Part shown: one piece after another, positions 15,252-31,020 of the stretch | Layout: each line of letters starts with the position of its first letter | Position numbering within the stretch: the first letter of the stretch is position 1 | Source: Herbinix sp. | GTDB lineage: Bacteria > Bacillota > Clostridia > Lachnospirales > Lachnospiraceae | Direction: 5' to 3' | Length of the DNA: 36,147 nt | Assembly: GCA_028691795.1 (NCBI GenBank) | Contig: JAQUYQ010000014.1 | Coordinates: forward strand, 1 to 36,147 | Notes under the pieces: generated by a model | Told to the model about the DNA's origin: nothing | The model's input: the letters and a program-made list of their open reading frames with translations, nothing else | Database searches by the model: none | Position numbers and translations under genes: made by a program

Positions 15252-15296
15252 TCAAAAAAATATAAACAGTATATATTAATTATTGGGAGGATTTGT

Positions 15297-16742
15297 ATGA
15301 AAATGAAAAAAAGTAAAATTACTGCTTTGATTTTAGCAGTGGCGTTAGTAATGTCCGGATGTAGTTCAAGTGACGATAAAACGCAACAGACAACGGATAC
15401 AACAGCTCAGACATCAACGAATACCGTAACTGAAGCTACTACTGTTCCGAAGACGACTTCAGGGGATCCAGTTGAAATTACCTTTACCTATTGGGGAAGT
15501 GGTGCTGAAAAAGAAGCGATTGAAGCATCAATTGCTACCTTCGAAGATGCTTATCCAAATATCAAAGTAAAAGGGATGCATATCCCGAGTGAAGATTTCT
15601 TAACCAAACTTAATGCTATGATAGCAGCCGGTGAAACACCCGATATCAGTTATTCAGCTTCCTGGAAATGCCAGTTCGGTGAAGATGGACTTATTTATAA
15701 CTTTTTTGATTTGGCAAAAGGAGATCCTGACCTATCTGTTGATAAATATCTTGATACATGCTGGTGGAATTGGTCACCAACAGAATCTGCAGGTCCGATT
15801 ATGGCAAACGTTACTACTTCATTGATGTATAATGCAGATATGTTCAAAGAAGCAAATGTTGACCTGCCTCCCACAACTGTTGATTCTGCTTGGTCATGGG
15901 AAGAATTTGTAGACGTTGCCCAGCAATTGACGATTGACTCATCAGGAAGAAATGCAAAGGATCCTAATTTTGACTCCAATAATATTTCACAATATGGAAT
16001 TATGTTTTCACCTAACTGGAATGTATATATGCCATTTGTATATTCAAATGGCGGCGGATATTTAAACGAAGACATGACTGGGTTAGGACTGAACGATCCT
16101 GCGGCAGCAAAAGTAATCCAAAACTTTGCAGATTTAATCAATGTGTACCATGTTGCACCTACTGCAATACAGTCTAATAGTATGCCGGCAGCGGCAACTG
16201 CATTAGCTTCTAAACAAGCAGCAATGTATATCGATGGCAGTTGGAATCATCTCGATTTATCTAAGGCTGGAATTAACTGGGGAGTTGGTGTTCTGCCTAT
16301 AAATCAAAATTATACAACTTTCCTTGACGGTGGTTCATTAATCGTGTTTAAAGCTACAGAACATCTTAAAGAGACAATGCTATTATACAAATGGATTACC
16401 AATCCGGAAAGTTCTGCTGAAATTACTGAAATGTTCAGAACAATTTGGCTTCCTGTTCAGAAAGAATATTATACAGATGCCAAAAAACTAGATTTTTGGG
16501 CTTCTGAGGATTTACCAGCACGTCCCACGGGATTTAAAGATGCAGTGGTGCTTTCCACCTATGAAAACCAGGTAATTGCAACAGAAATTGATGTAAAGAA
16601 CTTTAATGAAATCAATACATTAGTTAATTCATCTTTGGATCAAGTTTGGTCAGGTGATAAGACTGCTGAAGAAGCTATGACAGAAGTAAAAGATCAGGTA
16701 GATTCATTAGTCGATGGTACTTACTCTGGTAATCGTTCATAG
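15297..16742 (+). CDS. Extracellular sugar-binding lipoprotein, ABC family 1 (module B)
   Basis: This 481-residue protein opens with a lipoprotein signal (lysine-rich start, hydrophobic core, lipobox VMSGC, lipidated C22) and a Thr-rich linker to about residue 58. The type 1 solute-binding domain follows (ITFTYWGSGAEKEAIEASI near its start). GGGAGG lies upstream of the ATG. It heads a four-gene operon with two permeases and a glycosidase. Aromatic residues are frequent (for example CWWNWSP), as in carbohydrate-binding clefts. The ligand is unknown. Confidence 0.93.
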   Translation: MKMKKSKITALILAVALVMSGCSSSDDKTQQTTDTTAQTSTNTVTEATTVPKTTSGDPVEITFTYWGSGAEKEAIEASIATFEDAYPNIKVKGMHIPSEDFLTKLNAMIAAGETPDISYSASWKCQFGEDGLIYNFFDLAKGDPDLSVDKYLDTCWWNWSPTESAGPIMANVTTSLMYNADMFKEANVDLPPTTVDSAWSWEEFVDVAQQLTIDSSGRNAKDPNFDSNNISQYGIMFSPNWNVYMPFVYSNGGGYLNEDMTGLGLNDPAAAKVIQNFADLINVYHVAPTAIQSNSMPAAATALASKQAAMYIDGSWNHLDLSKAGINWGVGVLPINQNYTTFLDGGSLIVFKATEHLKETMLLYKWITNPESSAEITEMFRTIWLPVQKEYYTDAKKLDFWASEDLPARPTGFKDAVVLSTYENQVIATEIDVKNFNEINTLVNSSLDQVWSGDKTAEEAMTEVKDQVDSLVDGTYSGNRS

Positions 16743-16751
16743 GATCAAATA

Positions 16752-16792
16752 TAAATATTTCCTGGCCATTATAATTGACCGGGAAATATTTA
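16752..16792 (+). promoter_or_regulatory. Intercistronic hairpin after the module B binding-protein gene
   Basis: A 14-bp stem (16752-16765 with 16779-16792; one T-G pair) lies between the binding-protein and permease genes, 9 bases after the stop. No T-tract follows. It occupies the same place as the hairpins at 8634 and 24730. Confidence 0.65.
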
Positions 16793-16810
16793 CGATAAAT
16801 GGGAGGAAGC

Positions 16811-17710
16811 ATGAAAAATAAAATGACGCTAAGAAAGAAACGAGAGAATATAGCAGGTTTCTTTTTCAGCCTGCCATGCATCATAGGTTTTATTATGTTC
16901 GCGGCCATTCCTATGATGGTGAGTCTAGGATTAAGTTTTACAGATTATAACGTAATAAACCATAGTACGTTTGTAGGCTTAGATAATTATAGTAAATTAT
17001 TTAACGGAGATGATCCTTATTTTTATAAATCATTAAAAGTTACGATTTATTATGTCGCTTTATCGGTTCCTACTTCAATTATTTTTTCTTTTTCTATAGC
17101 GATGCTATTAAACAGAGACATAAAAGGTAAGGGCATTTTTAGAACACTTTTTTATTTGCCTTCAATTGTCCCAACGGTTGCAATTTCAGCAATTTGGCTC
17201 TGGGTACTGAATCCTGATTTTGGATTAGCTAATTCCATTCTTAAAAGTATAGGATTATCTCCTAGCAGGTGGCTAACCAGCGAAGCTACTGTTATTCCCA
17301 CATTAGTATTTATTAATTTATGGACTACCGGATCTACCATGGTTATTTTTCTAGCAGGCATGCAGGATGTTCCCAGACAGCTTATAGAAGCTGTTGAAAT
17401 AGATGGAGGTGGCTTTAGGACTAAATTGTTTCATGTTATCGTTCCTATGATGACTCCGACAATATTCTATAATGTGGTTATGGGTTTTATTAGCGGTTTT
17501 CAAGTTTTTGCTCAATCTTATATTATGACATCCGGTGGACCTAATAATTCCAGTTTGTTTTATGTCTTCTATCTTTATCGAGAAGCATTTCAATTTATGA
17601 GAATGGGAAGCGCCTGCTCGATAGCGTGGGTATTATTTATAATCATTATGATTTTTACTGCAATTCTATTTAAATTGCAAAATAAGTGGGTCTATTATGG
17701 AGGTGAATAA
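16811..17710 (+). CDS. Sugar ABC transporter permease, CUT1 MalF type (module B)
   Basis: The ATG at 16811 is chosen because GGGAGGA sits just upstream; an in-frame ATG at 16799 precedes that site and cannot use it. The 299-residue protein has about six membrane helices, the first at about 14-42, and an EAA loop EAVEIDGG (193-200). Its stop is immediately followed by the start of the partner permease. No ATPase is encoded with the pair. Confidence 0.93.
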   Translation: MKNKMTLRKKRENIAGFFFSLPCIIGFIMFAAIPMMVSLGLSFTDYNVINHSTFVGLDNYSKLFNGDDPYFYKSLKVTIYYVALSVPTSIIFSFSIAMLLNRDIKGKGIFRTLFYLPSIVPTVAISAIWLWVLNPDFGLANSILKSIGLSPSRWLTSEATVIPTLVFINLWTTGSTMVIFLAGMQDVPRQLIEAVEIDGGGFRTKLFHVIVPMMTPTIFYNVVMGFISGFQVFAQSYIMTSGGPNNSSLFYVFYLYREAFQFMRMGSACSIAWVLFIIIMIFTAILFKLQNKWVYYGGE

Positions 17711-17711
17711 G

Positions 17712-18548
17712 TTGGGAAAAGCAAAAAAAATATTAAATAAGATAATAGTTTATATATTGGTGATTTTTGGTGGTATTGCTTGTCTTATTCCTTTATTATG
17801 GATGTTTAGAAGCTCACTAATGAACTCTGTTGAAATCTTTATGACACCGCCTAAAGTATTTCCAAGTAAGGTATTATGGTCAAACTTTACTGAAGTTTTT
17901 GAGTTATATCCTTTCTTAACATATTATAAAAATTCAATCATTCTAGTTGTTTTGATTGTTTTTGGCACTGTAATAACCAGTTCTTTATGTGCGTATGGCC
18001 TTGCAAGAATAAAGTGGGTAGGAAGAAATATTGTTTTTGCATGTATTATGGGGAGCATGATGCTCCCATTTGCTGTAACATTAATTCCAACTTTTATTAT
18101 GTTTCGTAAGATAGGATTTACTGATAGTATAATCCCGCTTATAGTACCTGCCTGGTTGGGTGGTGGTGCTTTTTACATATTTCTTCTTCGGCAATTTTTT
18201 ATGACAATTCCTAGGGATTACGATGAAGCCGCATATATTGATGGTGCCGGTCATCTCAAGATTTACATGAAAATAATACTGCCATTAACCAAACCAGCGA
18301 TGGCAGTTGTAGGTGTATTTAGCTTTTTAAATACGTGGAATGATTTTCTTGGTCCTTTAGTTTATTTAAACAGTGAAAGCAAGTATACGGTAGCGTTAGG
18401 ATTACAGTTATTTACAGGAGTATATAGATCAGAATGGAATCTGATGATGGCTGCTTCCTGCTTGGTAGTAATACCTGTAATTATTGTATTTATTATTGGT
18501 CAAAGATATTTTTTGGAAGGATTAACAATGTCGGGTGTAAAAGGCTAA
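17712..18548 (+). CDS. Sugar ABC transporter permease, CUT1 MalG type (module B)
   Basis: The TTG at 17712 is taken as start. GGAGGTG (17699-17705) overlaps the end of the previous gene and lies six bases upstream; the in-frame ATG at 17697 would contain that site. The 278-residue protein has about six membrane helices, the EAA loop DEAAYIDGAG (171-180) and the tail MSGVKG. One base separates it from the previous stop, so translation is probably coupled. Confidence 0.92.
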   Translation: MGKAKKILNKIIVYILVIFGGIACLIPLLWMFRSSLMNSVEIFMTPPKVFPSKVLWSNFTEVFELYPFLTYYKNSIILVVLIVFGTVITSSLCAYGLARIKWVGRNIVFACIMGSMMLPFAVTLIPTFIMFRKIGFTDSIIPLIVPAWLGGGAFYIFLLRQFFMTIPRDYDEAAYIDGAGHLKIYMKIILPLTKPAMAVVGVFSFLNTWNDFLGPLVYLNSESKYTVALGLQLFTGVYRSEWNLMMAASCLVVIPVIIVFIIGQRYFLEGLTMSGVKG

Positions 18549-18575: not shown

Positions 18576-20828
18576 ATGTATACAGGATTTGATGAAGTAT
18601 TAAAGGAGCAAGTGAATCCATTTTTTTGTATCAGTGTGAAAGACGGTGATTATGAGTGCGGTAATAAGGAAAGTTATTACGCTAAGAAATTTCCGGATGA
18701 AACTTTTTCTTATGATGTGTCGAACTGTAAAGTACTTGCCAACATGAATGAATTTGGAACTTTAAAGTCGGTTACATTTTATAGAAACAGCTATTCATGT
18801 GATGATATTCCTGGAGTTTGGATTGCTAAGGATTTTGGGCAGGAGGGACCTTTTTTTTATCGGATAAAAATAGGTAATGAATGTATTGATCTAAAAGATT
18901 ATAAAGGTAGTGTCCAGTCGGACCTCATGAATAATTTATTTCCGAGGGTAAAATTTGAACTCGATAAAATAACGGCAACATTATTGGCATTTGCGCCAAT
19001 TTCTGCTGATGGTAGGGAAAGGCTTCGAGGTTTGGTTTATGGTCTATATATCAGTAACAAAACCAAAGAGGATTTGGACGTCAGTGTTTTTCCCCCTGAT
19101 TTTTCTCCGGGAAATAATTATTTTACAATTACAAATGCCAGTGGAAAGGTTTTGGAGAATGTTACAGAGGGAAGAGAAATTTCAATTAAAATAAATAGCA
19201 AAGGGAGTGCATGGGTACCAACAGTTATTTATGGACCTGGTGATAATAAAGATGTAAATATTATAGAAAATAAAGGTACTCTGTATTGGTTCAATCAGAC
19301 CTTAAGTTATTTTAAAAATATGCTGGGCAATCTGTCTATGGATACAGATCCTCTCACTGCAGCTATATTTGAAAGAGCTGTGTATCAGGGTATTTCCTCT
19401 GTGGGTATGAATAGGGAGGGTGAAGTAGTTGGATCCAATTGGGGAACATTTCCGACAACAAAACAAATTTGGATGAAGGATATGTTTTATTCCTACCTGC
19501 CTTTGAGTGTATTGGACCCAGAATTCTTTTTGAAGGGATGTCTGTGGTTCTTAGATAATGGTATCAGACCAGAAGGCTCAAAATATAAAGGTGGTATTTA
19601 TCATTCATTAAGTAATTCTTTGATTTCTGTAATTATGGTGGGTATGTATTATGATTCAACCGGAGATAAGGAGTTCTTTAAAAGTAATAAAGTTATTTAT
19701 AATAAACTAAATAAAATTCTAGAAGAAACATTACAATTAAAACCCGACGACTGTTGGCTGTTTCCTTCTTTATGGATTTCAGATGCCTTATCTTTAGGAA
19801 AATATCATACGGGTTCTAATATATGCGTGTGGAAGGCTTTTAACGGTATATCAAGAATTGCAGGAGAAGTGTTTGAAGATGATAATCTTCAGTGTAAGTA
19901 TAAGGAAATAGCAATGCATATAAAAGTAGATATTGAAAAGTATATGGTAATAGAAGGAAAATTCGGACCTCAGTATTTGGAAGGTATTGGGGGATTAACC
20001 CAAGAATTACAGAAAACATACCCAGTAGAAGAGTACAATAAAGAATTTATTAATCAAGCAATGGTATTCTTACCCGATGTTATTAAAGATGGTTATATAA
20101 ATCTGGTAATGCATGATGGAGAAGAATCCGATACTACGTTAATACCATTCTATAAATATAAGAGCTATGATGATGGTGTGGTAAGAAATTATGCAAAGTT
20201 TACTACCAGTCAGGAAAATCCGACTTATGGCACAGAATGTCGTGGTATAAAATGGGGAAATGAATCGGGAGCTACATTTCCGGGATACACAACTGCCTTT
20301 GCAGGAATTGTTGATTCCGAAACCATGAACGGTGACCGAGGATATATGCGTGAATTAAAGAGATTAGTAGACATAGACGGTTCTTGGTGGTGGTGGCCAT
20401 ATAAATGCAATACGAAGACCGGTGATGTTGTTAGATTAAATTGCTGCGGAAAGTGCGGATGGGCATCTGGAGTTTTTGCATCCATGTTCATGACACAAAT
20501 ACTGGGAATACAATACGACGCACCGTCAAAGCAGTTGAATTTCAGACCATTCTCTCCATGCAGTAACTTTGTATGGCAAAATGCAAGAACTGGGAGCGGT
20601 AAATTTGATTTTAGCTATCAAGAAAATATTGATATGATAAGTGTATCAGTTACGAACAGAGGTAAAGAAGCTGTTACCGCGGTTATTGAAATTATTTCAG
20701 ACAGAATACCTATAAAATCTGATACACAGGCAAAGATACCTTATACGAAAGGTAAGTTCTTGGGCAAAAACACGATTATTGTCACTACTGAATTAAGGCC
20801 AAGTATGATGTGTGAGATTATTGCATAA
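18576..20828 (+). CDS. Putative (alpha/alpha)6-barrel glycosidase or phosphorylase, family not recognised
   Basis: This 750-residue cytoplasmic protein (no signal peptide) has the layout of six-hairpin carbohydrate enzymes: an N-terminal beta-sandwich (about 1-240), a helical barrel (about 250-650) and a small C-terminal beta domain. Points of interest are QIWMKDMFYSYLP (297-309, with D302), HDGEESDTT (513-521), SWWWWPYK (603-610) and CCGKCGWASGVF (623-634). Acidic residues such as D302, E516, E517 and D519 are candidates for catalysis, but I cannot align them to a numbered family. It is last in the operon after a lipoprotein and two permeases, which supports action on the imported saccharide. 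The fold assignment is inferred from helix pattern and aromatic motifs. Confidence 0.6.
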   Translation: MYTGFDEVLKEQVNPFFCISVKDGDYECGNKESYYAKKFPDETFSYDVSNCKVLANMNEFGTLKSVTFYRNSYSCDDIPGVWIAKDFGQEGPFFYRIKIGNECIDLKDYKGSVQSDLMNNLFPRVKFELDKITATLLAFAPISADGRERLRGLVYGLYISNKTKEDLDVSVFPPDFSPGNNYFTITNASGKVLENVTEGREISIKINSKGSAWVPTVIYGPGDNKDVNIIENKGTLYWFNQTLSYFKNMLGNLSMDTDPLTAAIFERAVYQGISSVGMNREGEVVGSNWGTFPTTKQIWMKDMFYSYLPLSVLDPEFFLKGCLWFLDNGIRPEGSKYKGGIYHSLSNSLISVIMVGMYYDSTGDKEFFKSNKVIYNKLNKILEETLQLKPDDCWLFPSLWISDALSLGKYHTGSNICVWKAFNGISRIAGEVFEDDNLQCKYKEIAMHIKVDIEKYMVIEGKFGPQYLEGIGGLTQELQKTYPVEEYNKEFINQAMVFLPDVIKDGYINLVMHDGEESDTTLIPFYKYKSYDDGVVRNYAKFTTSQENPTYGTECRGIKWGNESGATFPGYTTAFAGIVDSETMNGDRGYMRELKRLVDIDGSWWWWPYKCNTKTGDVVRLNCCGKCGWASGVFASMFMTQILGIQYDAPSKQLNFRPFSPCSNFVWQNARTGSGKFDFSYQENIDMISVSVTNRGKEAVTAVIEIISDRIPIKSDTQAKIPYTKGKFLGKNTIIVTTELRPSMMCEIIA

Positions 20829-21205: not shown

Positions 21206-21219
21206 TGAAAGCGGTTTCA
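21206..21219. promoter_or_regulatory. LacI/CcpA-type operator at the regulator's transcription start
   Basis: TGAAAGCGGTTTCA fits the catabolite-responsive element consensus TGWAANCGNTNWCA at every position. The same shape also suits an autoregulatory LacI-family operator. It lies just downstream of the -10 box, where binding would block transcription. Confidence 0.72.
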
Positions 21220-21252: not shown

Positions 21253-22290
21253 ATGGCTAAAATATCAAAGGCAAATATAACGATATCAGACATTGCAGAG
21301 TCTGCTGGGGTATCGAAAGCAACGGTTTCTAGAGTTCTTAATTCACCGGAATTGGTAGATGAAAAAACCAGAGAAAAAATCGAAAAAGTAATTAAGGAAA
21401 ATCATTATTCACCTTCTGCCACAGCTAGAAATTTATCAAAACAAATATCCTCTACCATTGGAGTGATCGTTCCGGAAATCAGTAATACCTTTTTTGGCGA
21501 ATTGTTTGAAGGAATAGAGGAAATAACAAACAAGAATAATTTATCTTTACTTTATTGTAGTAATGATGATAATAAAGAGAAAGACTTTAAAGCATTAGAC
21601 ATGATGCGAACTCAACGAGTCAGAGGTTTGATTTACATACCGGCTGTTAATTACAAAGAGTTAGGATTATTAAAACAAGTTCAACAGAGACTGGATGGAT
21701 TAGCTGGCCCTGTAATATGTGTTGATAGAAGTATTGGATTACGATGTGATGAGATTTATTTTAATGATAGAAAAGCCATGTATGAGGCGGTTAAAGCTTT
21801 AGCAGTTGATGGACATAAGAGAATTGCCATTATTAATGGTTCAAAACAGAACGTACTGGCTGAAGAAAGACATAACGGTTATATAGATGGATTAAAAGAG
21901 TCAGGCATAGAAGTAGATGAGTCAATAATCTTTCGAGGAGATTACAAGTATTCATCAGCTTATTCCATGACGAAACAAATGATAAAATTAGAAAATCAAC
22001 CTACAGCAGTTATTACTTGCAATAATAGTATTAGCAAGGGTTTCTTAAAAGCTATTTATGAAACAGGAAAAAGTATTCCAGATGCTTATATGCATATTGG
22101 GCTAGATAAGATTGAGATGTTGAATTTACTTGGTATTCCATATAACCATATAGAAAGAGATTCTTATGAGTTGGGAAAACGAGCTGTTGAAATCTTAATT
22201 AATCGAATTGCTTTTCCAGAAACGAAATTACAACAGGTGGTGTTACAGGCGGAACTTGAGTTACAGACTTGTAGACTTGTAAAAATGTAA
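21253..22290 (+). CDS. LacI-family transcriptional regulator
   Basis: This 345-residue regulator has an N-terminal LacI helix-turn-helix at about 10-33 (ISDIAESAGVSKATVSRVLN) with the hinge helix near 58-66. A periplasmic-binding-protein-like effector domain follows (about 70-345; IGVIVPEISNTFF marks its start). Its own promoter carries an operator-like site, and a related palindrome lies ahead of the next operon, so it probably represses both until a sugar or sugar phosphate binds. The gene ends at a terminator and is thus a separate unit. The downstream epimerase suggests an allulose-related effector; that is inference. Confidence 0.93.
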   Translation: MAKISKANITISDIAESAGVSKATVSRVLNSPELVDEKTREKIEKVIKENHYSPSATARNLSKQISSTIGVIVPEISNTFFGELFEGIEEITNKNNLSLLYCSNDDNKEKDFKALDMMRTQRVRGLIYIPAVNYKELGLLKQVQQRLDGLAGPVICVDRSIGLRCDEIYFNDRKAMYEAVKALAVDGHKRIAIINGSKQNVLAEERHNGYIDGLKESGIEVDESIIFRGDYKYSSAYSMTKQMIKLENQPTAVITCNNSISKGFLKAIYETGKSIPDAYMHIGLDKIEMLNLLGIPYNHIERDSYELGKRAVEILINRIAFPETKLQQVVLQAELELQTCRLVKM

Positions 22291-22319
22291 TGGTTACACG
22301 AAAGCTCAATGATGAGTAA

Positions 22320-22355
22320 ATAAAGTGATTGTTATTCAATCACTTTATATTTTGT
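22320..22355 (+). terminator. Terminator of the LacI-type gene
   Basis: ATAAAGTGATTG (22320-22331) pairs perfectly with CAATCACTTTAT (22337-22348) around a five-base loop. ATTTTGT follows the stem. Confidence 0.75.
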
Positions 22356-22362
22356 CTCTCGA

Positions 22363-22376
22363 TGGAACCGGTTACA
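22363..22376. promoter_or_regulatory. LacI-type operator upstream of the allulose operon
   Basis: TGGAACCGGTTACA has the perfect core AACCGGTT and differs from the cre consensus at one position. It lies 49 bases before the RpiB-like start and resembles the site at 21206. No clear -35/-10 pair was found around it. Confidence 0.6.
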
Positions 22377-22424
22377 TCAAAATATGGTAATAAAAGAATG
22401 TTTATTGAATAGGAGGACGAAAGG

Positions 22425-22904
22425 ATGGAACAACAATTGAAATTAGTAATGGGATGTGATCCAGCAGCATACGATTTCCATTTGGATATCTTAAAAGCTA
22501 TGCGTAACAGAGGCTATAAGATTGATGATGTAGGTTGTAACTCAGCACAGGAAACAGATGGTGGTAAATATGCAGAAATAGCAGAAATTCTAACAAATAA
22601 AGTAATATCGGGTGAATATGATTATGGTATTTTAATATGTGGAACAGGACAAGGGATGGCTATGGCAGCTAATAAAGTACCTGGGGCTAGAGCGGTACTT
22701 TGCTATGATGTATTACCGGCAGTATTAAGTAAAAATGATAATAATGGAAATATTTTGTGTACAGGTGCATGGATGATGCAAATGAAAGGGATAGACTTCA
22801 CACTATCTATGATTGAAGCTTGGCTGTTTAGTGGATACACAGGAACCCATGAAGATGGTATGAGAGCGTTAGAGAGATTAGATAGTTTGAAATATAACAA
22901 TTAG
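22425..22904 (+). CDS. RpiB/LacAB-family sugar isomerase, atypical active site
   Basis: This 159-residue protein has the whole RpiB fold. The active-site cysteine is kept in GILICGTGQGMAMAANK (C70). By alignment from memory with E. coli RpiB, the histidine of GCDH is a proline here (GCDP), the later catalytic histidine (HND in E. coli) is replaced (KNDNNGN), and the arginines that grip the phosphate near the C-terminus are not clearly kept. Some RpiB enzymes convert free D-allulose and D-allose, so this one may act on an unphosphorylated ketose. It is first in an operon with a sugar importer and an allulose 3-epimerase. AGGAGGA precedes its ATG. The substrate is inferred. Confidence 0.85.
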   Translation: MEQQLKLVMGCDPAAYDFHLDILKAMRNRGYKIDDVGCNSAQETDGGKYAEIAEILTNKVISGEYDYGILICGTGQGMAMAANKVPGARAVLCYDVLPAVLSKNDNNGNILCTGAWMMQMKGIDFTLSMIEAWLFSGYTGTHEDGMRALERLDSLKYNN

Positions 22905-22944
22905 TATAAGTTTTAAATCATAGAAAGATAAGGAGGTGAAAAGA

Positions 22945-23520
22945 TTGAGTGATAGATTTAGAGAATTATCACAAGTGGCATTAGGTGAGTTGAATGCCGT
23001 TTTTGGACGTATGAATGATAATGCTGTAAGAGGATTATTAGAAAAAATAAAAGAATCAGATAGAATCTTCTTATTAGGAGCGGGCCGCGAAGGCTTATCA
23101 ACAAGAGAATTCGCTATGAGATTAATGCATGTAGGTAAACAAAGCTATTGGGTATGGGATGATACGACCCCTTCCATGAGGGAAGGGGATCTATTCATCT
23201 GTGCTTGTGGCAGCGCGGATGTGGAACATGAAAATACTTTGTGTGATAATGCTAAAAAAACGGGTGCTACATTGGCTTTGGTTACACCTTCTGCTAGAGG
23301 ACATATTTTAGATATTGCGGATTTGGTTGTCAAAGTACCTGCTACAGCATATAAAGCAGTTTACGAATCAGATGAGGATCATGTACCAACAACTCAAATG
23401 ATGGGAAACCAATTTGAACAGGCATTACTTGTGTTATTTGATGTATTAATTATGATGTATTGTGAAGAAATGGGTATTTCCAATGAGGAAATGGAAGCAA
23501 GACATAGAAACATTGAGTAG
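22945..23520 (+). CDS. SIS-domain sugar isomerase, 6-phospho-3-hexuloisomerase (HxlB)-like
   Basis: The start is set at TTG 22945, eight bases after AGGAGG (22931-22936); the in-frame GTG at 22936 overlaps that site and is unlikely. The 191-residue product is a single SIS domain: GAGREG (45-50), EFAMRLMHVGK (55-65), ICACGSADVEHE with the Ser/Gly loop (85-96), and MGNQFEQALLVLFD (153-166) with E158 at the place of the HxlB catalytic glutamate. HxlB enzymes interconvert hexulose-6-phosphate and fructose-6-phosphate. Next to a 3-epimerase this suggests handling of 3-keto or rare ketohexose intermediates. No kinase is in the operon, so the phosphate source is unexplained. Confidence 0.83.
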   Translation: MSDRFRELSQVALGELNAVFGRMNDNAVRGLLEKIKESDRIFLLGAGREGLSTREFAMRLMHVGKQSYWVWDDTTPSMREGDLFICACGSADVEHENTLCDNAKKTGATLALVTPSARGHILDIADLVVKVPATAYKAVYESDEDHVPTTQMMGNQFEQALLVLFDVLIMMYCEEMGISNEEMEARHRNIE

Positions 23521-23585
23521 TAGTGTTAATAGTCTCATTTTTGGACGATAGTAAAAAAACATATATTGATATAGGAGGATTTATT

Positions 23586-24716
23586 ATGAAAAGAAGTATT
23601 TTAAGTATTATTATTGTAATCACTATGGTATTTAGCTTAACAGCTTGTGGAAGTAAAAAAACAGATGAGAGTCCAGCAACTTCTAAAGAAACAACAAAAG
23701 AAACAGCAACAGTAACAGAAGAAGCAACAACAGATGCAGGTAGTACTGATTTATTAAATCCAGCTAATTACGTATCGGATAAAGAAAAATCTGAGTGGAC
23801 AATCGCAGTAATCGTTAAAGATGCCACATCCGACTGGTTCAAACGTATGCAAGTTGGCGTAGATGATTTTGGTAATAAAATGGCTGTGAACGTAATTCAA
23901 AAAGGACCAGCAAGTGCAGATGCAGCTTCACAGGTGCAATTGGTAGAAGATATGATGAATCAAGGTGTTGATGCGCTTTGTATTATCCCTATCGATCCAG
24001 GTGCTTTAGAATCAGTTTTAGAGGAAGCTATGAATAGAGGTATAGTAGTAGTTAGTCACGAAGCTTCAAATTTAAAAAACACATTGTATGATGTAGAAGC
24101 ATTTACAGCAGAATCCTTTGGTGAAACGATGATGGATCAGTTGGCACAAGCAATGGGTAAAAAAGGAAAATATGCTCAAATGGTTGCATACACTACTTCA
24201 ACAACACATATGGAATATTCAAATGCAGAACATAACTTCCAAGTAGAAAATTACCCGGATATGTCTTTAATTAATGATACAGTTCCTTCTGCAGAATCAG
24301 AAGAAAAAGTGGATACAGCTTATAGTAAAGCAAAGGAAATTTTAAAAGCAAATACTGATTTAGCAGGATTTACAGGTGCAGCATCAGTAGATATTCTTGG
24401 TGAAGCACAAGCGGTTGAAGAACTTGGATTATCCGATCAGGTTTCCATAGTTGGTGTTGGTACACCGAATGCTTGTAAAGAATATGTTCACAATGGCACC
24501 ATTTCAGCTGTCTGCTTATGGGACCCAGCATTAGCTGGATTTGCAATGTGTGATGTTGCATACAAGATTTTATCAGGAGAAGAAGTTGGTAATGGTTCTG
24601 ATCTTGAATGTGAAGGTTATAACAGTGTATCACTTAAAGAAGGTATAAATCGTTGTTTGCTTGGAAATGCTCCGCTTATATTAAAAGATGATAATATAGA
24701 TAATTATGATTTTTAA
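23586..24716 (+). CDS. Sugar-binding lipoprotein, ribose-type (Peripla_BP_4)
   Basis: The ATG at 23586 is chosen because GGAGGA lies just upstream and it opens a classic lipoprotein signal (MKRSIL, hydrophobic stretch, LTAC with C21). An in-frame codon further upstream would give a soluble extension and is rejected. The 376-residue protein has a Ser/Thr-rich linker and a type 1 periplasmic-binding fold like RbsB/XylF (WTIAVIVKDATSDWFKRM, then VDALCIIPIDPGALE). It belongs to the CUT2 class, which carries monosaccharides. With the downstream epimerase, D-allulose or a related hexose is the likely ligand. Confidence 0.92.
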   Translation: MKRSILSIIIVITMVFSLTACGSKKTDESPATSKETTKETATVTEEATTDAGSTDLLNPANYVSDKEKSEWTIAVIVKDATSDWFKRMQVGVDDFGNKMAVNVIQKGPASADAASQVQLVEDMMNQGVDALCIIPIDPGALESVLEEAMNRGIVVVSHEASNLKNTLYDVEAFTAESFGETMMDQLAQAMGKKGKYAQMVAYTTSTTHMEYSNAEHNFQVENYPDMSLINDTVPSAESEEKVDTAYSKAKEILKANTDLAGFTGAASVDILGEAQAVEELGLSDQVSIVGVGTPNACKEYVHNGTISAVCLWDPALAGFAMCDVAYKILSGEEVGNGSDLECEGYNSVSLKEGINRCLLGNAPLILKDDNIDNYDF

Positions 24717-24729
24717 TTAGTTAAAAAGG

Positions 24730-24757
24730 TTACCAGGCGGGGAAACCTGCCTGGTAA
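24730..24757 (+). promoter_or_regulatory. Intercistronic hairpin after the allulose binding-protein gene
   Basis: TTACCAGGC (24730-24738) pairs perfectly with GCCTGGTAA (24749-24757), and more G-C pairs are possible inside the loop. There is no T-tract. The ATPase gene begins 87 bases later, so this probably stabilises the upstream message or partly terminates. Confidence 0.68.
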
Positions 24758-24844
24758 TATAAATGCTAAAATAAAGTGTCTGCTTATATGGCTGTGGAAC
24801 AGTAGAGCAAGTCATACAGTTGATATAAAGGAAGGAGCAAGACA

Positions 24845-26329
24845 ATGTCAGAAAACATTTTATGCGTCAAAGGAATTAAAAAATCTTTTGGTGGAGTTCA
24901 TGCTTTAAAAGGTGTGGATTTAACAATTAAAAAAGGCGAAACGCATTGTTTGGCAGGCGAAAATGGTTGTGGTAAATCAACCATTATTAAAATAATATCA
25001 GGTTTCTACAAAGCTGATGAAGGTACCATTGAAATTGACGGAAAAAAAATTCAGAAATTAACCCCGATGGATGCCATTAACGCAGGAATACAAGTGATTT
25101 ATCAAGATTTCTCAATATTTCCAAATTTAACAGTTATGGAAAATCTAGCATATAATCAGGTGCTTGCTGAAAAGAAAAAGATTGTAAATAAAAAAGAATT
25201 TAGAAAAATAGCTAAGATAGCATTAGATAAAATTAATCTTAATATAGATTTAGATGCAAGAGTGGAAACTCTCCCTGTTGCAGATAAGCAGTTAATTGCA
25301 ATTTCCAGAGCATTATTGCATAATGCTAAACTTATTATTTTGGATGAACCAACAACTGCACTGACAAAAAAAGAAGTTACAAGACTTTTTGAAATATTAG
25401 AAGATTTAAAGAAGAAAGGAATCGCCATTCTTTTTGTATCACACAAATTAGATGAGGTGTTTGAAATATCAGAGCATATCACTGTCTTAAGAAGTGGAGA
25501 AAATGTATATGATTGTCCAACAATTAACATGACAAAAGAAAAATTTACTTATTATATGACAGGACGTAATTTTGATACAGCTCTGAAAAAAGCAGGGAAA
25601 GACTTTTCAAAAGAAAAACCCATCCTAGAGGTAGAAAAATTATCAGCACCTGGCTTTGATGACGTTAGCTTTAAATTGCATCAGGGTGAAATTCTTGCTG
25701 TGACCGGACAGCTTGGCAGTGGACGAACGGAATTAAGTCTTGCATTGTTCGGTTTATTAAAACCAACGGGTGGAAATATATTAGTAGACGGAAATGCTGT
25801 TCGTATAAATAATGTAGAGCAGGCACAAAAACTAGGTCTTGCATTAGTTCCGGAAGATCGTTTGACAGAAGGTTTATTTTTACCAAGACCGATTTATAAA
25901 AATATTTCAGTTACAAAATTAAAAGAATTAGCACATGGAGTTTTTATTAAAGATAAAGACCAGAAAAGCTTATCACAGAAGTGGGTAGATGAAATTGGAG
26001 TAGCTACCAAAAATCATACTTTGGCAGTGCAAACACTTTCAGGTGGTAATCAGCAAAAGGTTGTATTAGCACGGTGGTTGGCAACGAATCCAAGAATTTT
26101 AATTTTGAACGGACCAACAGTTGGAGTTGATATAGGAGCTAAATATGATATTCACAATCTGTTAAAAGGATTGGCTGAAAAAGGAATGGCAATTCTTGTG
26201 GTATCAGATGATATTGATGAAATTTTGTCACTTTGTGACCGCGCTATCATTATGAAGGGCGGTAAAATGACAGGTGTAATTGAGGGCACAGATCTTGTAA
26301 ACGAAACATTATATAAAGAAACAATATAA
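24845..26329 (+). CDS. Sugar ABC transporter ATPase, RbsA/XylG type with two ATPase domains
   Basis: This 494-residue protein contains two ABC domains. Domain 1 (about 1-245) has an intact Walker A GENGCGKST (38-46) and Walker B LIILDEPT (163-170), but its signature is degenerate (VADKQ, 145-149). Domain 2 (about 257-494) has a good signature LSGGNQQK (398-405), but Walker A GQLGSGRTE (288-296) lacks the lysine and Walker B reads ILILNGPT (418-425) without the catalytic glutamate. Only one of the two composite ATP sites should therefore hydrolyse ATP (domain 1 Walker motifs with domain 2 signature). It powers the importer made with the two permeases that follow. Confidence 0.95.
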   Translation: MSENILCVKGIKKSFGGVHALKGVDLTIKKGETHCLAGENGCGKSTIIKIISGFYKADEGTIEIDGKKIQKLTPMDAINAGIQVIYQDFSIFPNLTVMENLAYNQVLAEKKKIVNKKEFRKIAKIALDKINLNIDLDARVETLPVADKQLIAISRALLHNAKLIILDEPTTALTKKEVTRLFEILEDLKKKGIAILFVSHKLDEVFEISEHITVLRSGENVYDCPTINMTKEKFTYYMTGRNFDTALKKAGKDFSKEKPILEVEKLSAPGFDDVSFKLHQGEILAVTGQLGSGRTELSLALFGLLKPTGGNILVDGNAVRINNVEQAQKLGLALVPEDRLTEGLFLPRPIYKNISVTKLKELAHGVFIKDKDQKSLSQKWVDEIGVATKNHTLAVQTLSGGNQQKVVLARWLATNPRILILNGPTVGVDIGAKYDIHNLLKGLAEKGMAILVVSDDIDEILSLCDRAIIMKGGKMTGVIEGTDLVNETLYKETI

Positions 26330-26346
26330 CGGAAGGAGAAAGAATC

Positions 26347-27363
26347 ATGAATAAGAAAATGAAGAGTATGGTGAAACAGATAGAATTTTATATATTCTGT
26401 ATAATTATCGTTTTTGCATTTATTATCCAAATCCGTTCCGGTCAGTTTTTCACTAATAATAATATTATGGACTTGGTTCGGTCTATGATTGTTCCAGGTA
26501 TATATGCTATTTGCGCAATGCTTAGTTTTGTAAGTACGGGTGCTGATGTATCATTCCCGCTCATTGCTGCACTATCAGCTTATATAGGAGTTGCAGTGGG
26601 GAATAGATACGATCTTGGAGTAATTCCTATTTTTTTAATTGCAATAGGTTTTGGATGTTTAATTGGATGTATTAATGGCTTCTTTATTGTTAAGTATAAA
26701 TTTAATAGTCTGATTGTGACTCTCGGTACATCTTCTATTTGCAGCGGTATTTTATTTGGTACTTTTGAAGCGGGGCGTACTGAACTTCCCAAAAGACTAT
26801 ATACCTTGAGTAAAATTAATATTGCAGTAGTAAAAAATGCCACGACAGGAATTGGCTCTTCCCTTCCCTGTACATTCTTAATCATGGTGGCATTGTACAT
26901 TATTGCATACATGATTCTTAATTACACCATGATAGGACGAGGCGTATATGCAGTAGGTGGTGATGAAATCAGTGCTGAAAGAGCTGGATTTCATGTGAAG
27001 TCCATTCGTTTTGGAGTGTTTGTTATTAATGGTGGTATTGCAGCAATTGCAGGTCTTTGCTATGCGATGATGTCATATTTCTATATGCCAAATGAATATG
27101 GTGGAGCGGAAATGCTGGTTATTGCAGCGGTTATTTTAGGTGGAACCAGAATGACAGGTGGTATTGGAACATTAAAAGGCTGCTTATTAGGAACATTTTT
27201 ACTTACCATGGTTAAAAACAGCCTAATCCTTCTTGGAATATCAGTATACTGGGAAAAAGTATTTATCGGAGCAATTATTATTATTGGTACAGCGATTTCC
27301 GCTATGCAGGCGATTAATGCTACTAAAACAGCTGATAAAAAAATGAAAGGGGAGAAAGCATAA
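26347..27363 (+). CDS. Sugar ABC transporter permease, RbsC type (first)
   Basis: This 338-residue protein has eight to ten hydrophobic helices and fits the BPD_transp_2 family (RbsC/XylH). Typical parts are ALSAYIGVAVG near residue 77, GVYAVGGDEISAERAGF (199-215) for ATPase contact, and AAVILGGTRMTGGIGT (about 260-275). It starts 17 bases after the ATPase stop. Its TAA overlaps the next ATG by one base (TAATG), so the two permeases are coupled. Confidence 0.93.
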   Translation: MNKKMKSMVKQIEFYIFCIIIVFAFIIQIRSGQFFTNNNIMDLVRSMIVPGIYAICAMLSFVSTGADVSFPLIAALSAYIGVAVGNRYDLGVIPIFLIAIGFGCLIGCINGFFIVKYKFNSLIVTLGTSSICSGILFGTFEAGRTELPKRLYTLSKINIAVVKNATTGIGSSLPCTFLIMVALYIIAYMILNYTMIGRGVYAVGGDEISAERAGFHVKSIRFGVFVINGGIAAIAGLCYAMMSYFYMPNEYGGAEMLVIAAVILGGTRMTGGIGTLKGCLLGTFLLTMVKNSLILLGISVYWEKVFIGAIIIIGTAISAMQAINATKTADKKMKGEKA

Positions 27364-28340
27364 TGAATAAAAGTGATACAAAGAAGAAATTTTCTTTACC
27401 TTTTGATGAAAACGTTAACCTCCTTTTGATTATACTAATTGCGCTAGTAATTATAACAGGTGTCACAAAATCAGATAGTTTTATTAATACCGGAAACTTT
27501 CAATCAATTGGAAAACAATTGACAGAATACGGATTGATGTCGCTTGGTATGGGTGTATGTATGATCTGCGGCGGAATTGATTTATCATCTGTATATGTTG
27601 CAAATCTTTGCGGTATCTCTGCTGGTATGATTATGCAAAACTATGCAGGAAGCGGCGGAATTGTTTTAGCTTGTTTAGTTGCTCTTTTCGTGGGTCTTTT
27701 ATGTGGTACTTTTAATGGTATATTAATCAGTAAATTACATATTCCCCCGATGCTGGCAACGCTTGGGAGCTATGAACTATTTATGGGTATTTCCATTGTG
27801 CTTTCTGGTGGTAGTACTGTTTCCGTTACAGGTGATTTTTCGAAATTTACAAGAATAAATATTTTTCGAATTCCTTTACCCTTTATTATATTTATCCTAT
27901 GTACGATTATTTTAAATTTTATCATGAGTCGTACATGTTTTGGAAATCGCGCATATTTAGTAGGTACAAACGAAAAATCAGCTAGATTTTCTGGAATTAA
28001 TATTAATTTAACAACAATCCAATGCTATATGATATCTGGTGTCTTATCAAGTATTGCTGGTTTAATCAGCCTTTCAAGATTGAGTTCTGCTAAAGCAAAC
28101 TTTGGAACTAGTTATACCATGCAGACCATTTTAGTTGTAGTGCTTGGTGGAATTAGTCCAAATGGTGGATACGGAAAAATCCCTGGAATAGCATTTGCAG
28201 TTATTATTTTACAGGTGCTCTCTTCTTATTTAAATCAATTCCCTAATATAAGTAATTATTATAGAGATTTGATGTGGGGCGTTGCATTATTAGCAGTATT
28301 AGTTTTTAATGTTAAAATGTCAAAACGTAAATCCAGGTAA
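27363..28340 (+). CDS. Sugar ABC transporter permease, RbsC type (second)
   Basis: This 325-residue BPD_transp_2 protein shows the ATPase-contact stretch AYLVGTNEKSARFSGI (198-213) and VVLGGISPNGGYGKI (258-272). It overlaps the previous gene by one base. Two different permeases suggest a heterodimeric channel, as in several CUT2 systems. The epimerase gene follows after 27 bases. Confidence 0.93.
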   Translation: MNKSDTKKKFSLPFDENVNLLLIILIALVIITGVTKSDSFINTGNFQSIGKQLTEYGLMSLGMGVCMICGGIDLSSVYVANLCGISAGMIMQNYAGSGGIVLACLVALFVGLLCGTFNGILISKLHIPPMLATLGSYELFMGISIVLSGGSTVSVTGDFSKFTRINIFRIPLPFIIFILCTIILNFIMSRTCFGNRAYLVGTNEKSARFSGININLTTIQCYMISGVLSSIAGLISLSRLSSAKANFGTSYTMQTILVVVLGGISPNGGYGKIPGIAFAVIILQVLSSYLNQFPNISNYYRDLMWGVALLAVLVFNVKMSKRKSR

Positions 28341-28367
28341 AAGCAAACATAAACAGGAGGCAGAATT

Positions 28368-29252
28368 ATGCAGCATGGTATTTATTATGCATATTGGGAA
28401 AAGGAATGGACGGGCGACTACCTTTATTATATAGAGAAAGTTGCAAAATTAGGATTTGATATTCTTGAAATAGCGGCTGGACCGATTCCTAGTTATAGCG
28501 ATGTACAGTTAAATAATATAAAAGAATGTGCTAAGGCAAATAACATTCGTATTACAGTAGGATATGGTCCTTCTCCAGCAAATAATATTGCATCAAGTGA
28601 CGAAGCGGTTAGAAAAAATGCTTTAGCTTATTATACAGAGCTTTTTAAGCGTATGGAAAAAATAGATGCAACTATAATTGGTGGAGCTCTATATTCCTGC
28701 TGGCCAATCGACTATTCTAAACCAGTTGATAAAAAAGGTGATTGGAGCAGAGGCGTTGAAGGGTTGGCACAGATGAGTAAAATCGCCCGTGAATGCGGAG
28801 TGGAAACATTAGGTTTAGAGGTTCTAAATCGATTTGAAAATCATGTTTTAAATACAGCAGCTGAAGGAGTTCAGTTTGTAAAGGAAGTTAGAGAGTTAGA
28901 GACAAATGCAACCAATGTAAAAGTAATGCTTGATACATTTCATATGAATATTGAAGAGCAAAGTATCGGTGAGGCAATTCGTACAGCAGGGGCATATTTG
29001 GGACATTTTCATACGGGTGAATGTAATCGTATGGTTCCTGGAAAAGGACGTACACCTTGGCGAGAAATCGGTGAAGCACTTAAGAGCATCAATTATAATG
29101 GAACAGTGGTAATGGAGCCTTTTGTAAGAAGTGGTGGCCAGGTTGGCCAGGATATTAAAATTTGGCGTGAAATTGTTACTGATACAAGTGAAGCTGCTCT
29201 TGATAAAAATGCAAAGGATGCTTTGAATTTTCAAAGATATATATTGGGCTAA
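28368..29252 (+). CDS. D-allulose (D-psicose) 3-epimerase
   Basis: This 294-residue TIM-barrel protein closely resembles characterised clostridial D-psicose 3-epimerases as I remember them (for example that of Clostridium cellulolyticum): HGIYYAYWE near the start, KVAKLGFDILEIAA (24-37), GGALYSCWPIDYSK (105-118) and LDTFHMNIEE (188-197). The metal-binding and catalytic set is intact: E151 (LEVLNRFEN), D189, H215 (GHFHTGEC) and E250 (VVMEPF). The enzyme interconverts free D-fructose and D-allulose at C3 using Mn2+ or Co2+. As last gene of the transporter operon it would turn imported allulose into fructose. D-tagatose is an alternative substrate in this family. Confidence 0.92.
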   Translation: MQHGIYYAYWEKEWTGDYLYYIEKVAKLGFDILEIAAGPIPSYSDVQLNNIKECAKANNIRITVGYGPSPANNIASSDEAVRKNALAYYTELFKRMEKIDATIIGGALYSCWPIDYSKPVDKKGDWSRGVEGLAQMSKIARECGVETLGLEVLNRFENHVLNTAAEGVQFVKEVRELETNATNVKVMLDTFHMNIEEQSIGEAIRTAGAYLGHFHTGECNRMVPGKGRTPWREIGEALKSINYNGTVVMEPFVRSGGQVGQDIKIWREIVTDTSEAALDKNAKDALNFQRYILG

Positions 29253-29333
29253 AATGCTAAGCTGTCAAAAGCTTAAGTGATTTTATATTATAGTCGATAA
29301 CATATTAACAATACATTTTATATTATAAAATTT

Positions 29334-29368
29334 AGTGGGTTCAGGGTAGTTATGGACCTACTTTTTTT
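29334..29368 (+). terminator. Terminator of the allulose operon
   Basis: AGTGGGTTC (29334-29342) pairs with GGACCTACT (29354-29362), using two G-U pairs, and a run of T residues follows to 29368. The loop sequence resembles that of the hairpin at 1352-1390. Confidence 0.78.
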
Positions 29369-29455
29369 ATACATAATTATTGATTTTGCAATACAGCGGA
29401 ACATACTTTTTTAATTATTGTACATTAAATGTAGACGGGAATCCGTATATATCTA

Positions 29456-29529: not shown

Positions 29530-31020
29530 ATGAAACAATACGTAATGGCACTCGACCAGGGAACCACTAGTTCAAGATGTATTATTTTTGATAAGCTGGG
29601 AAAAATGAAAAGCGTTGCACAGAAGGAATTTACTCAGATATATCCAAAGCCCGGTTGGGTGGAGCATAATCCGATGGAGATCTGGTCCTCACAAATATCG
29701 GTTGCGACGGAAGCTATGGCTAAGCTTGGAATAGGTGCGGATGAGATAGCCTCCATCGGTATTACTAATCAACGTGAAACAACAATTGTCTGGAATAAAA
29801 AAACCGGACAACCCGTTTATAATGCAATAGTTTGGCAGTGCCGGAGAACATCGGATATCATTAATGACCTGAAAGCAAGAGGACAGGAAGCATACATTAA
29901 GGACCGGACAGGTTTAATCCCGGATGCTTATTTTTCGGGAACGAAGATTAAGTGGATTTTAGATAATGTTCCTGGAGCAGGGGAAGCAGCAAAAACAGGA
30001 GAGCTTCTCTTTGGAACCGTGGATACCTGGATTATCTGGAATTTAACGAAGGGTAAAACCTTTATAACAGATTATACAAATGCTTCCCGTACGATGCTTT
30101 TTGATATTAAAAAGCTGACCTGGGATGATAAAATATTAGCAGAGCTTGATATTCCAAGGGAAATGCTTCCGGAGGTTAAGCCTTCTAGTTGCGTTTATGG
30201 ATACTCGGATAGAAGCCTTTTCGGTGAGGAGATTGTGATTGCAGGTGCAGCAGGAGACCAGCAGGCAGCGTTATTTGGACAATGCTGTTTTACCAAAGGT
30301 GAGGTCAAGAATACCTATGGAACAGGATGCTTCCTTCTTATGAATACCGGAAGCGAAGTAATAACCTCTAAACACGGATTACTTACTACCTTGGCAGCAA
30401 GTACCGAAACAAAACCGCAATATGCATTAGAAGGCAGTGTATTTGTAGCAGGAGCAGCAGTACAATGGCTCAGGGATGAGCTTCAGTTAATAAGGACAGC
30501 GGCTGAAAGTGAGAAATATGCAATGCAGGTTGAGGATACGAATGGGGTATATATGGTTCCGGCATTTGCAGGACTTGGCGCACCCTACTGGGATCAATAC
30601 GCCAGAGGAGCAATCTTAGGAGTAACCCGCGGATGCAACCGGGATCATATTATTAGGGCTACTCTGGAAGCAATTGCTTATCAGACCTATGATGTTCTAA
30701 GAGCAATGGAAGGGGATTCGGGTAATCGCTTAAAATCACTTAAGGTGGATGGAGGAGCTTGTGCAAACCGCTTCCTTATGCAGTTTCAGGCAGATATCCT
30801 AAATACAATTGTACTGAAACCGGAATGTATCGAGACAACTGCTCTTGGAGCTGCCTACCTGGCAGGACTTGCGGTGGGATTTTGGAAGGACAAGGAAGAA
30901 ATCAAGAGGAACTGGGCACTTGCAGAAACCTTTAATCCAAAAATGAAATCGGAAAGAATAGAAACTTTAATATCCGGCTGGAAGAAAGCCGTAACTCGCT
31001 CTTTTGCATGGGAAGAATAA
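29530..31020 (+). CDS. glpK: Glycerol kinase
   Basis: The 496-residue protein is the usual length for GlpK, an FGGY-family kinase that makes glycerol 3-phosphate from glycerol and ATP. The phosphate-1 loop [10 protein letters not shown] (7-16) is classic. [10 protein letters not shown] (44-53), [11 protein letters not shown] (78-88) and [11 protein letters not shown] also fit the family, and the C-terminal adenosine-binding region ([15 protein letters not shown]) is present. GGGGG precedes the ATG. No glpF or glpD lies beside it. A rhomboid gene follows after 26 bases, perhaps co-transcribed. Its codon use looks less AT-biased than the sugar island before it. Confidence 0.96.

What the first reader, a model, noticed from the sequence alone, without database searches (positions are those of the whole stretch)
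22363..29252. A complete candidate allulose/allose uptake and conversion operon
An RpiB-like isomerase, an HxlB-like SIS isomerase, a ribose-type importer and an intact D-psicose 3-epimerase are consecutive, follow a LacI gene and end at one terminator. The model: imported D-allulose is epimerised to D-fructose, and D-allose may be isomerised to allulose by the RpiB-like protein. It differs from the E. coli als system, which works on phosphorylated sugars with AlsK and AlsE. No sugar kinase is present here. Clostridial psicose epimerases are known as enzymes; I do not know of a described pathway with this gene set.
Basis: partly seen in the sequence, partly recalled or inferred. Interest (0 to 1): 0.75.

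Follow-up and report, generated by a model that had tools for sequence, protein, structure and literature searches.

The report
Bacterial operon for eating allulose
A bacterium, probably of the Clostridia, carries a conserved eight-gene set that probably imports the rare sugar allulose (and perhaps allose) and turns it into fructose, using two isomerases that appear to have lost the grip on phosphate that their enzyme families normally depend on.

Summary
The operon is real: LacI gene, RpiB-like, HxlB-like (SIS), complete CUT2 importer, intact D-psicose (allulose) 3-epimerase. The order recurs in Catonella morbi, a Lachnospiraceae MAG and Petroclostridium, with LacI-type operators before lacI and rpiB in all four (read by eye). 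Petroclostridium's version also holds a PfkB sugar kinase; the window genome has a 62% relative elsewhere, a candidate for the 'missing kinase'. In two Rhizobiaceae genomes the best match of the binding protein lies beside the epimerase gene, probably in the allulose-induced psi operon (PMC7445875). New here: the RpiB-like protein has no basic residue at four positions aligned with RpiB's phosphate ligands (4 of 4 operon copies; 0 of 13 other family members compared), and the HxlB-like protein has lost SGSGxT (4 of 4; 7 of 7 HxlA-linked HxlBs keep it). A relative stands with an importer and a xylulokinase. Best reading: free-sugar uptake and isomerisation, kinase last. A related allulose operon is already in print.

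The parts
21206..21219 (.). operator-like palindrome TGAAAGCGGTTTCA before lacI (probable autoregulation, inferred)
   Evidence: similar site before lacI in the four loci, read by eye; one mismatch to TGRAACCGGTTWCA
21253..22290 (+). LacI-family repressor, probable allulose-responsive regulator
   Evidence: 58-63% relatives in L014, L021, L024 and, directly before an epimerase gene, L018
22320..22348 (+). hairpin with T-rich tail after lacI (terminator-like)
   Evidence: z-score -4.3 for 22300-22362
22363..22376 (.). operator-like palindrome TGGAACCGGTTACA before the rpiB-like gene; the only exact match of TGRAACCGGTTWCA in the assembly
22425..22904 (+). RpiB-like isomerase without the usual phosphate ligands; proposed free-sugar aldose-ketose isomerase (allose/allulose)
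22936..23520 (+). HxlB-like SIS isomerase with GREG/WDDTTP/CGSADV in place of GRSG/GETTTP/SGSGxT; proposed free-sugar isomerase
23586..24716 (+). sugar-binding protein of a CUT2 importer, proposed allulose binding protein
   Evidence: lipobox-like LTACG read from the translation
24729..24758 (+). GC-rich hairpin between binding-protein and ATPase genes
   Evidence: z-score -5.7 for 24716-24790
24845..26329 (+). two-domain sugar ABC ATPase
26347..27363 (+). ABC permease 1
27363..28340 (+). ABC permease 2
28368..29252 (+). D-psicose (D-allulose) 3-epimerase, active site intact
29334..29362 (+). terminal hairpin followed by a T run
   Evidence: fold of 29252-29380

Best explanation
A LacI-controlled operon for uptake of free D-allulose, probably also an aldose such as D-allose. 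The binding protein and CUT2 importer bring the free sugar in. The epimerase converts D-allulose to D-fructose. The RpiB-like enzyme isomerises free D-allose to D-allulose. The HxlB-like enzyme carries out a second aldose-ketose isomerisation of a free sugar, possibly D-altrose, the C2 epimer of allose. Fructose is phosphorylated last by a PfkB-type kinase, encoded in the operon in Petroclostridium and elsewhere in this genome. Shown from sequence: the gene set and its conservation, intact epimerase, operator-like sites, loss of residues aligned with phosphate ligands in both isomerases, presence of the kinase gene. Inferred: all substrates, the direction of flux, the order isomerase first and kinase last, and release of the repressor by allulose.
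For: Same eight genes in the same order in Catonella morbi (L014), a Lachnospiraceae MAG (L021) and, with a kinase gene inserted, Petroclostridium (L024). Epimerase above its curated cut-off and active-site intact. In the Agrobacterium tumefaciens B6 and Rhizobium rhizogenes genomes the best match of the window's binding protein (146.6 and 146.7 bits; next best 104.9 and 106.3) lies a few kb before the epimerase gene; the full gene order was read in B6. Rhizobiales PsiR is released by D-psicose in a reporter assay (PMC7445875, passages). Four of four operon RpiB-like proteins have no basic residue at positions 10, 110, 133 and 137 (E. coli numbering), while 13 of 13 other RpiB-family proteins compared, besides E. 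coli RpiB, keep at least one and 5 keep all. Four of four operon SIS proteins lack SGSGxT; 7 of 7 HxlA-linked ones keep it. Petroclostridium and Catonella carry other, canonical RpiB genes, so the operon copy need not be the housekeeping enzyme there. A related GREG-type SIS protein stands in an operon with an importer and a xylulokinase over its cut-off.
Against: No assay and no structure model (searches found the machine busy). The full set is rare: 3 of 80 epimerase loci carry the RpiB-like and HxlB-like genes (a lower bound, as several loci are cut by contig ends), and the nearest epimerase relative (85%, Anaerocolumna) has none of them within 10 kb. Loss of single phosphate ligands is common in the RpiB family: 8 of the 13 other members lack at least one of the four, and C. 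immitis RpiB still binds phosphate with one positively charged residue (PMC3212906, passages). The solved protein closest to the binding protein (5bra) is named for ribose. The assembly shows no RpiA and no other RpiB, so in this incomplete genome a housekeeping role is not excluded directly.
Confidence: 0.55

Rival explanations
1. The imported sugar is a pentose or another ribo-configured sugar, for example D-ribose: the RpiB-like enzyme makes D-ribulose, the epimerase makes D-xylulose, and a pentulose kinase follows; allulose is incidental.
For: Closest solved binding protein 5bra is named for ribose (38% identity over 309 aligned residues); a GREG-type SIS relative sits with a xylulokinase. 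That family epimerases also act on D-ribulose is recalled.
Against: The kinase inside the Petroclostridium operon scores best against fructokinase among the NCBIfam models, though far below that model's cut-off (194.5 against 450); the epimerase matches the psicose 3-epimerase model well above cut-off; PsiR, regulator of a related operon, answers to psicose (PMC7445875, passages).
Confidence: 0.2
2. The RpiB-like and HxlB-like proteins act on phosphorylated sugars through a different phosphate grip, and a kinase elsewhere acts first, as in the E. coli als or Klebsiella psicose routes.
For: Both families are known for phosphosugars (model names); other RpiB relatives with altered ligands exist; the Klebsiella psicose locus has a kinase and an allulose-6-phosphate 3-epimerase (PMC6020474, passages).
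Against: No basic residue at any of the four RpiB phosphate positions, and Glu where HxlB has Ser; ABC import leaves the sugar unphosphorylated (general knowledge); the epimerase belongs to a family described for a non-phosphorylated substrate (title of the A. tumefaciens structure paper, seen in the reference list of PMC9601914).
Confidence: 0.15
3. A plain allulose operon: importer, epimerase and LacI matter; the RpiB-like and HxlB-like genes are minor or accessory.
For: Of the 12 non-operon epimerases in the same clade, 11 have about 10 kb of upstream DNA held and show no such genes (the twelfth, L015, begins 125 bases before the gene); the two Rhizobiaceae copies read in full lack them.
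Against: Kept as an adjacent pair, at 66-75% identity to the window's genes, in the three other operons, with Cys66, Thr68, Asp9 and Asn100 of RpiB kept.
Confidence: 0.1

Closest known systems
psi (psicose) operon of Rhizobiales with LacI-family PsiR (PMC7445875, passages; loci L087, L157)
   Same: LacI regulator, CUT2 importer with a related binding protein, D-psicose 3-epimerase; probably a free-sugar route
   Different: Divergent regulator; in the two copies read, a second TIM-barrel protein and a P-loop kinase in the operon and no RpiB-like or HxlB-like gene. That L087 and L157 are the psi operon of the paper is my identification from gene order
Escherichia coli als (D-allose) system
   Same: importer, RpiB-family isomerase and a 3-epimerase between allose and fructose level (recalled; RpiB as allose-6-phosphate isomerase and AlsE in passages of PMC10576766)
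   Different: works on 6-phosphates with AlsK and AlsE (recalled); here the epimerase is of the free-ketose family and the RpiB-like protein lacks the usual phosphate ligands
Klebsiella pneumoniae psicose utilisation locus (PMC6020474, passages)
   Same: allulose as growth substrate
   Different: permease, ribokinase-type kinase and allulose-6-phosphate 3-epimerase, so a phosphorylated route
Clostridium cellulolyticum D-psicose 3-epimerase (PDB 3vnk/3vni)
   Same: same enzyme family, active site kept
   Different: enzyme only; its gene neighbourhood was not examined here

Membership tests
D-psicose (allulose) 3-epimerase | score above curated NCBIfam cut-off | tested here: met
   438.1 against 300
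D-psicose (allulose) 3-epimerase | metal and catalytic residues Glu150, Asp183, His209, Glu244 and binders of O1-O3 | tested here: met
   roles as stated for the Blautia enzyme in PMC9601914 (passages)
RpiB/LacA/LacB superfamily | score above Pfam PF02502 and TIGR00689 cut-offs | tested here: met
   112 against 24.7; 100.5 against 88.3
RpiB (ribose-5-phosphate isomerase B) | score above curated rpiB cut-off | tested here: not met
   window: TIGR01120 104.4 against 138.65, PRK05571 114.5 against 135. The Petroclostridium copy just passes PRK05571 (135.3 against 135) and fails TIGR01120
RpiB (ribose-5-phosphate isomerase B) | phosphate ligands at positions 10, 110, 133, 137 | tested here: not met
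   ligand roles from PMC4783025 and PMC3755991 (passages)
RpiB (ribose-5-phosphate isomerase B) | Asp9, Cys66, Thr68, Asn100 | tested here: met
RpiB (ribose-5-phosphate isomerase B) | ring-opening His99 | tested here: not met
   Asp in window, L014 and L021; His in L024
HxlB (6-phospho-3-hexuloisomerase) | score above TIGR03127 cut-off | tested here: inconclusive
   window 158.5, Catonella 161.3, cut-off 160
HxlB (6-phospho-3-hexuloisomerase) | GRSG and SGSGxT phosphate-site motifs | tested here: not met
   GREG and CGSADV; the phosphate role of the motif is recalled from SIS-domain enzymes
HxlB (6-phospho-3-hexuloisomerase) | partner HxlA in the same operon | tested here: not met
   none among the operon genes; the rest of the genome was not searched for HxlA
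Rhizobiales psi operon | LacI, CUT2 importer with related binding protein, D-psicose 3-epimerase | tested here: met
Rhizobiales psi operon | divergent regulator; in the copies read, second TIM-barrel protein and P-loop kinase | tested here: not met
Rhizobiales psi operon | induction by D-psicose | not testable with these tools
   needs an expression assay
E. coli als system | AlsK kinase and AlsE phosphosugar epimerase in the operon | tested here: not met
   no kinase or second epimerase match among the genes of 21253-29252

The most novel reading that the evidence does not exclude
The operon holds two isomerases, one from the RpiB family and one from the SIS/HxlB family, that were rebuilt to act on free sugars: a catabolic route (allose or altrose to allulose to fructose) in which every rearrangement precedes the kinase. 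The SIS member would belong to a wider GREG/WDDTTP subfamily of free-sugar isomerases that automatic models place at or near 6-phospho-3-hexuloisomerase.
Probability: 0.45. Interest if true: 0.75.

Novelty: new variant of a known kind. Interest (0 to 1): 0.55.

Why it matters
The papers on D-psicose 3-epimerases whose passages I read treat them as catalysts for making allulose; a conserved operon suggests a natural task for them, with named strains (Catonella morbi ATCC 51271, Petroclostridium sp. X23) in which it could be tested. It bears on which bacteria can use the sweetener allulose. It also predicts that some proteins scored as RpiB or 6-phospho-3-hexuloisomerase are free-sugar isomerases, which would correct annotations and might supply enzymes for making allose.

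Tried and rejected
Glycerol kinase at 29530-31020 as the missing kinase: rejected, it scores as GlpK far over its cut-off and lies after the terminal hairpin. A wider regulon: the exact operator occurs once in the assembly; allowing one mismatch gave 9 matches (two palindromic sites counted on both strands) against 3 for the reversed-pattern control, so no other member is claimed. RpiB-like protein as housekeeping enzyme: canonical copies in Catonella, Petroclostridium and the same-genus genome G530 speak against it, but it is not excluded for this 82%-complete assembly. The closest RpiB-like relative outside the operon (45%, L162) keeps GRHDVR and sits with transketolase- and aldolase-like genes (labels read from the translations). 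A plasmid search with the HxlB-like protein gave 361 records, all under 60% identity; three regions were opened. A plasmid search with the epimerase gave 13 records; two were opened. Allose, altrose and tagatose as substrates could not be separated by sequence. Paper searches on allulose routes: no listed title or abstract start shows this gene set; the library holds open-licence papers only and the listings were partial matches of the terms. A search on the 6-phospho-3-hexuloisomerase site found nothing; the passages gave no usable statement on the phosphate role of the SIS motif, so that role is recalled.

Rows dropped and limits of counts: one search used 14 of the 16 RpiB loci (L145 and L153 gave no frame by my filter); two of the 14 (L152, L155) are the Catonella and Petroclostridium operon copies, leaving 12 others from five genomes, plus the L109 protein, in all 13, plus E. 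coli RpiB. Position 110 and the 133-137 stretch depend on the alignment, which has an insertion and a gap there. The tree used 65 of 81 possible rows (frames with a blast alignment over 270 residues; L087, among others, fell out). L089, a contig end with importer and epimerase only, is left out of the RpiB/HxlB counts. One search used 21 rows: the window, 19 loci and 5bra. In one search part of the output was cut. My simple frame caller picked wrong-strand frames in GC-rich loci (for example L078, L087).
Full report
Observation. The operon is as described. Family searches give LacI (21253-22290), an RpiB-family protein (22425-22904), an HxlB-like SIS protein (22936-23520), a binding protein (23586-24716), a two-domain sugar ATPase (24845-26329), two permeases and a D-psicose 3-epimerase (28368-29252). 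The SIS protein is just under the HxlB cut-off (158.5 against 160) and under Pfam's SIS cut-off (21.1 against 25). The epimerase scores 438 bits against a cut-off of 300 and its best solved relatives are 3vnk/3vni, the C. cellulolyticum enzyme (PMC8467252, passage); of 16 active-site and pocket positions checked, 15 are the same as in 3vnk and position 66 is Tyr instead of His. Hairpins lie after lacI, after the binding-protein gene and after the epimerase gene.

Conservation. These counts are lower bounds because several loci are cut by contig ends; one, L089, has importer and epimerase and then ends. In sampled genomes the operon-type RpiB was found in 1 of 397 of the family (the own genome, E 1e-45) and, with an alignment, in 3 of 391 of the class (own, the Petroclostridium record again, and a 45% relative in another context). 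The HxlB-like protein was found in 5 of 391 of the class: own, the Petroclostridium record (69%) and three at 45-48%. So the set is rare but kept together across distant genomes. In a tree of 65 epimerases the four operon-borne ones lie in one supported group of 16 (99/96), Petroclostridium deepest; the label needs three changes. Of the other 12, 11 show no such genes in about 10 kb upstream and one (L015) is cut. An old operon lost repeatedly is one reading; repeated transfer is another.

Regulation. Each of the four loci has a palindrome fitting TGRAAVCGGTTWCA before lacI and before rpiB (read by eye). In this assembly the exact pattern TGRAACCGGTTWCA occurs once, at 22363-22376; the lacI site at 21206-21219 has one mismatch. 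This fits a local, self-regulating repressor (inference). In L018 a 58% LacI relative stands directly before an epimerase gene with other neighbours, which ties the regulator to the epimerase.

Import. Searching five genomes with the window's binding protein, the best match in A. tumefaciens B6 (146.6 bits, next 104.9) and in R. rhizogenes (146.7, next 106.3) lies a few kb before the epimerase gene (positions compared with L087 and L078). In B6 the order read is LacI (divergent), binding protein, ATPase, two permeases, TIM-barrel protein, kinase, psicose epimerase; an annotated copy with the same order is L157. In Labrys the two best matches lie within about 11 kb of the epimerase. PMC7445875 (passages) describes psiR of Rhizobiales facing an operon that begins with psiA and shows that PsiR releases its promoters in D-psicose; that the loci here are that operon is my identification from gene order. 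The closest solved protein is 5bra, named for ribose, at 38%, closer than the Rhizobiaceae proteins (30%). Allulose is D-ribo-hexulose (recalled), so the two hints are compatible.

The two isomerases. In RpiB the phosphate is held by His11, Arg113, Arg137 and Arg141 (L. donovani numbering; PMC4783025, passages) and by three arginines and His9 in LacAB (PMC3755991, passages). I aligned the four operon RpiB-like proteins with 13 other RpiB-family proteins (12 from five genomes, and L109) and with E. coli RpiB. At E. coli positions 10, 110, 133 and 137 the operon proteins have Pro/Pro/Pro/Leu, Trp, a gap and Gly: no basic residue in 4 of 4 (His134 is kept). Of the 13 others, 5 keep His10, Arg110, Arg133 and Arg137, 8 lack one or more, and 13 keep at least one basic residue. 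Asp9, Cys66, Thr68 and Asn100 are kept; His99 is Asp in three and His in Petroclostridium. C. immitis RpiB, with one positively charged ligand left, was proposed by its authors to use another substrate (PMC3212906, passages). The HxlB-like protein has GREG for GRSG, WDDTTP for GETTTP and CGSADV or CGSANV for SGSGxT in 4 of 4; 7 of 7 HxlB proteins with an HxlA-like frame in the same stretch keep GRSG and SGSGxT (HxlA recognised by length and N-terminus, six genomes). That this motif holds phosphate is recalled from SIS-domain enzymes; PMC3755991 says only that PGI and PMI hold it with three serines. A Glu in place of Ser would repel phosphate (inference). In a phylum sample, 10 of 398 genomes matched the seven-row SIS alignment at E 1e-40: the own genome, three with GREK/GRER and six with the HxlA-linked type. 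The GREG-type SIS protein of L108 stands in an operon of LacI, CUT2 importer and a xylulokinase (603 bits against a cut-off of 380), with no other sugar enzyme in the adjacent frames shown: the simplest reading is isomerisation of a free pentose before phosphorylation. In L109, a 3.9-kb contig, a GREG-type SIS protein stands with an RpiB-like protein and a TIM-barrel protein. Automatic naming would miss this: the Catonella SIS protein passes the TIGR03127 cut-off and the Petroclostridium RpiB-like protein passes PRK05571.

Kinase. Petroclostridium carries a PfkB kinase between the second permease and the epimerase (L024 8962-9933; PF00294). Its best NCBIfam model is fructokinase, far below that model's cut-off (194.5 against 450). 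The window genome has a 62% relative at G000:C216, next to a dehydrogenase-like gene (that label read from the translation). So the pathway can end in a sugar phosphate without a kinase in this copy.

Mechanism and rivals. I favour import of free allulose (and an aldose), epimerisation to fructose, kinase last, with the RpiB-like enzyme feeding allose into allulose and the HxlB-like enzyme a second free aldose, perhaps altrose. The role of the HxlB-like enzyme is the weakest step. A ribose-type substrate, phosphosugar isomerases with a new grip, and a plain allulose operon with two accessory genes remain open (see rivals).

Novelty. An allulose-induced operon with a LacI regulator is known from Rhizobiales (PMC7445875, passages), and phosphorylated allulose routes from Klebsiella (PMC6020474, passages) and E. 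coli als. This operon is a variant with two unusual isomerases. I found no paper on this gene set in the listings of the searches named under Tried and rejected.

Noticed in passing
window 18576-20828: 750-aa protein beside an importer-like gene set with no match in Pfam, NCBIfam or the PDB sequences at the limits used; it may be a carbohydrate-active enzyme, by context only.
   Followed up: partly
window 1740-18548: Two sensor/response-regulator pairs and two CUT1-type importer sets, read from the translations; labels recalled, no family search made.
   Followed up: no
G000 (own genome): No RpiA and no RpiB other than the operon's in the 82%-complete assembly, while a same-genus genome has two RpiB-family genes, one canonical.
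   Followed up: partly
L108 6856-14708: LacI, CUT2 importer, GREG-type SIS protein and xylulokinase: candidate free-pentose isomerase operon.
   Followed up: partly
L109 1269-3889, L112 5537-12067, L113 5508-16391, L125: Other GRE-type SIS proteins in sugar or polyol uptake operons, some with TIM-barrel proteins and kinases (labels partly read from translations); distinct in motif from HxlA-linked HxlB.
   Followed up: partly
L018 8954-10888: LacI relative (58%) directly before an epimerase gene, beside dehydrogenase-like genes and another CUT2-type importer, without RpiB-like or HxlB-like genes.
   Followed up: no
L010, L011, L012, L013: Close psicose epimerases that stand with no obvious sugar-uptake genes among the ten frames shown around them.
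   Followed up: no
L087 8377-9935: Rhizobiaceae operon holds a second TIM-barrel epimerase-like protein and a P-loop kinase between permease and psicose epimerase.
   Followed up: partly
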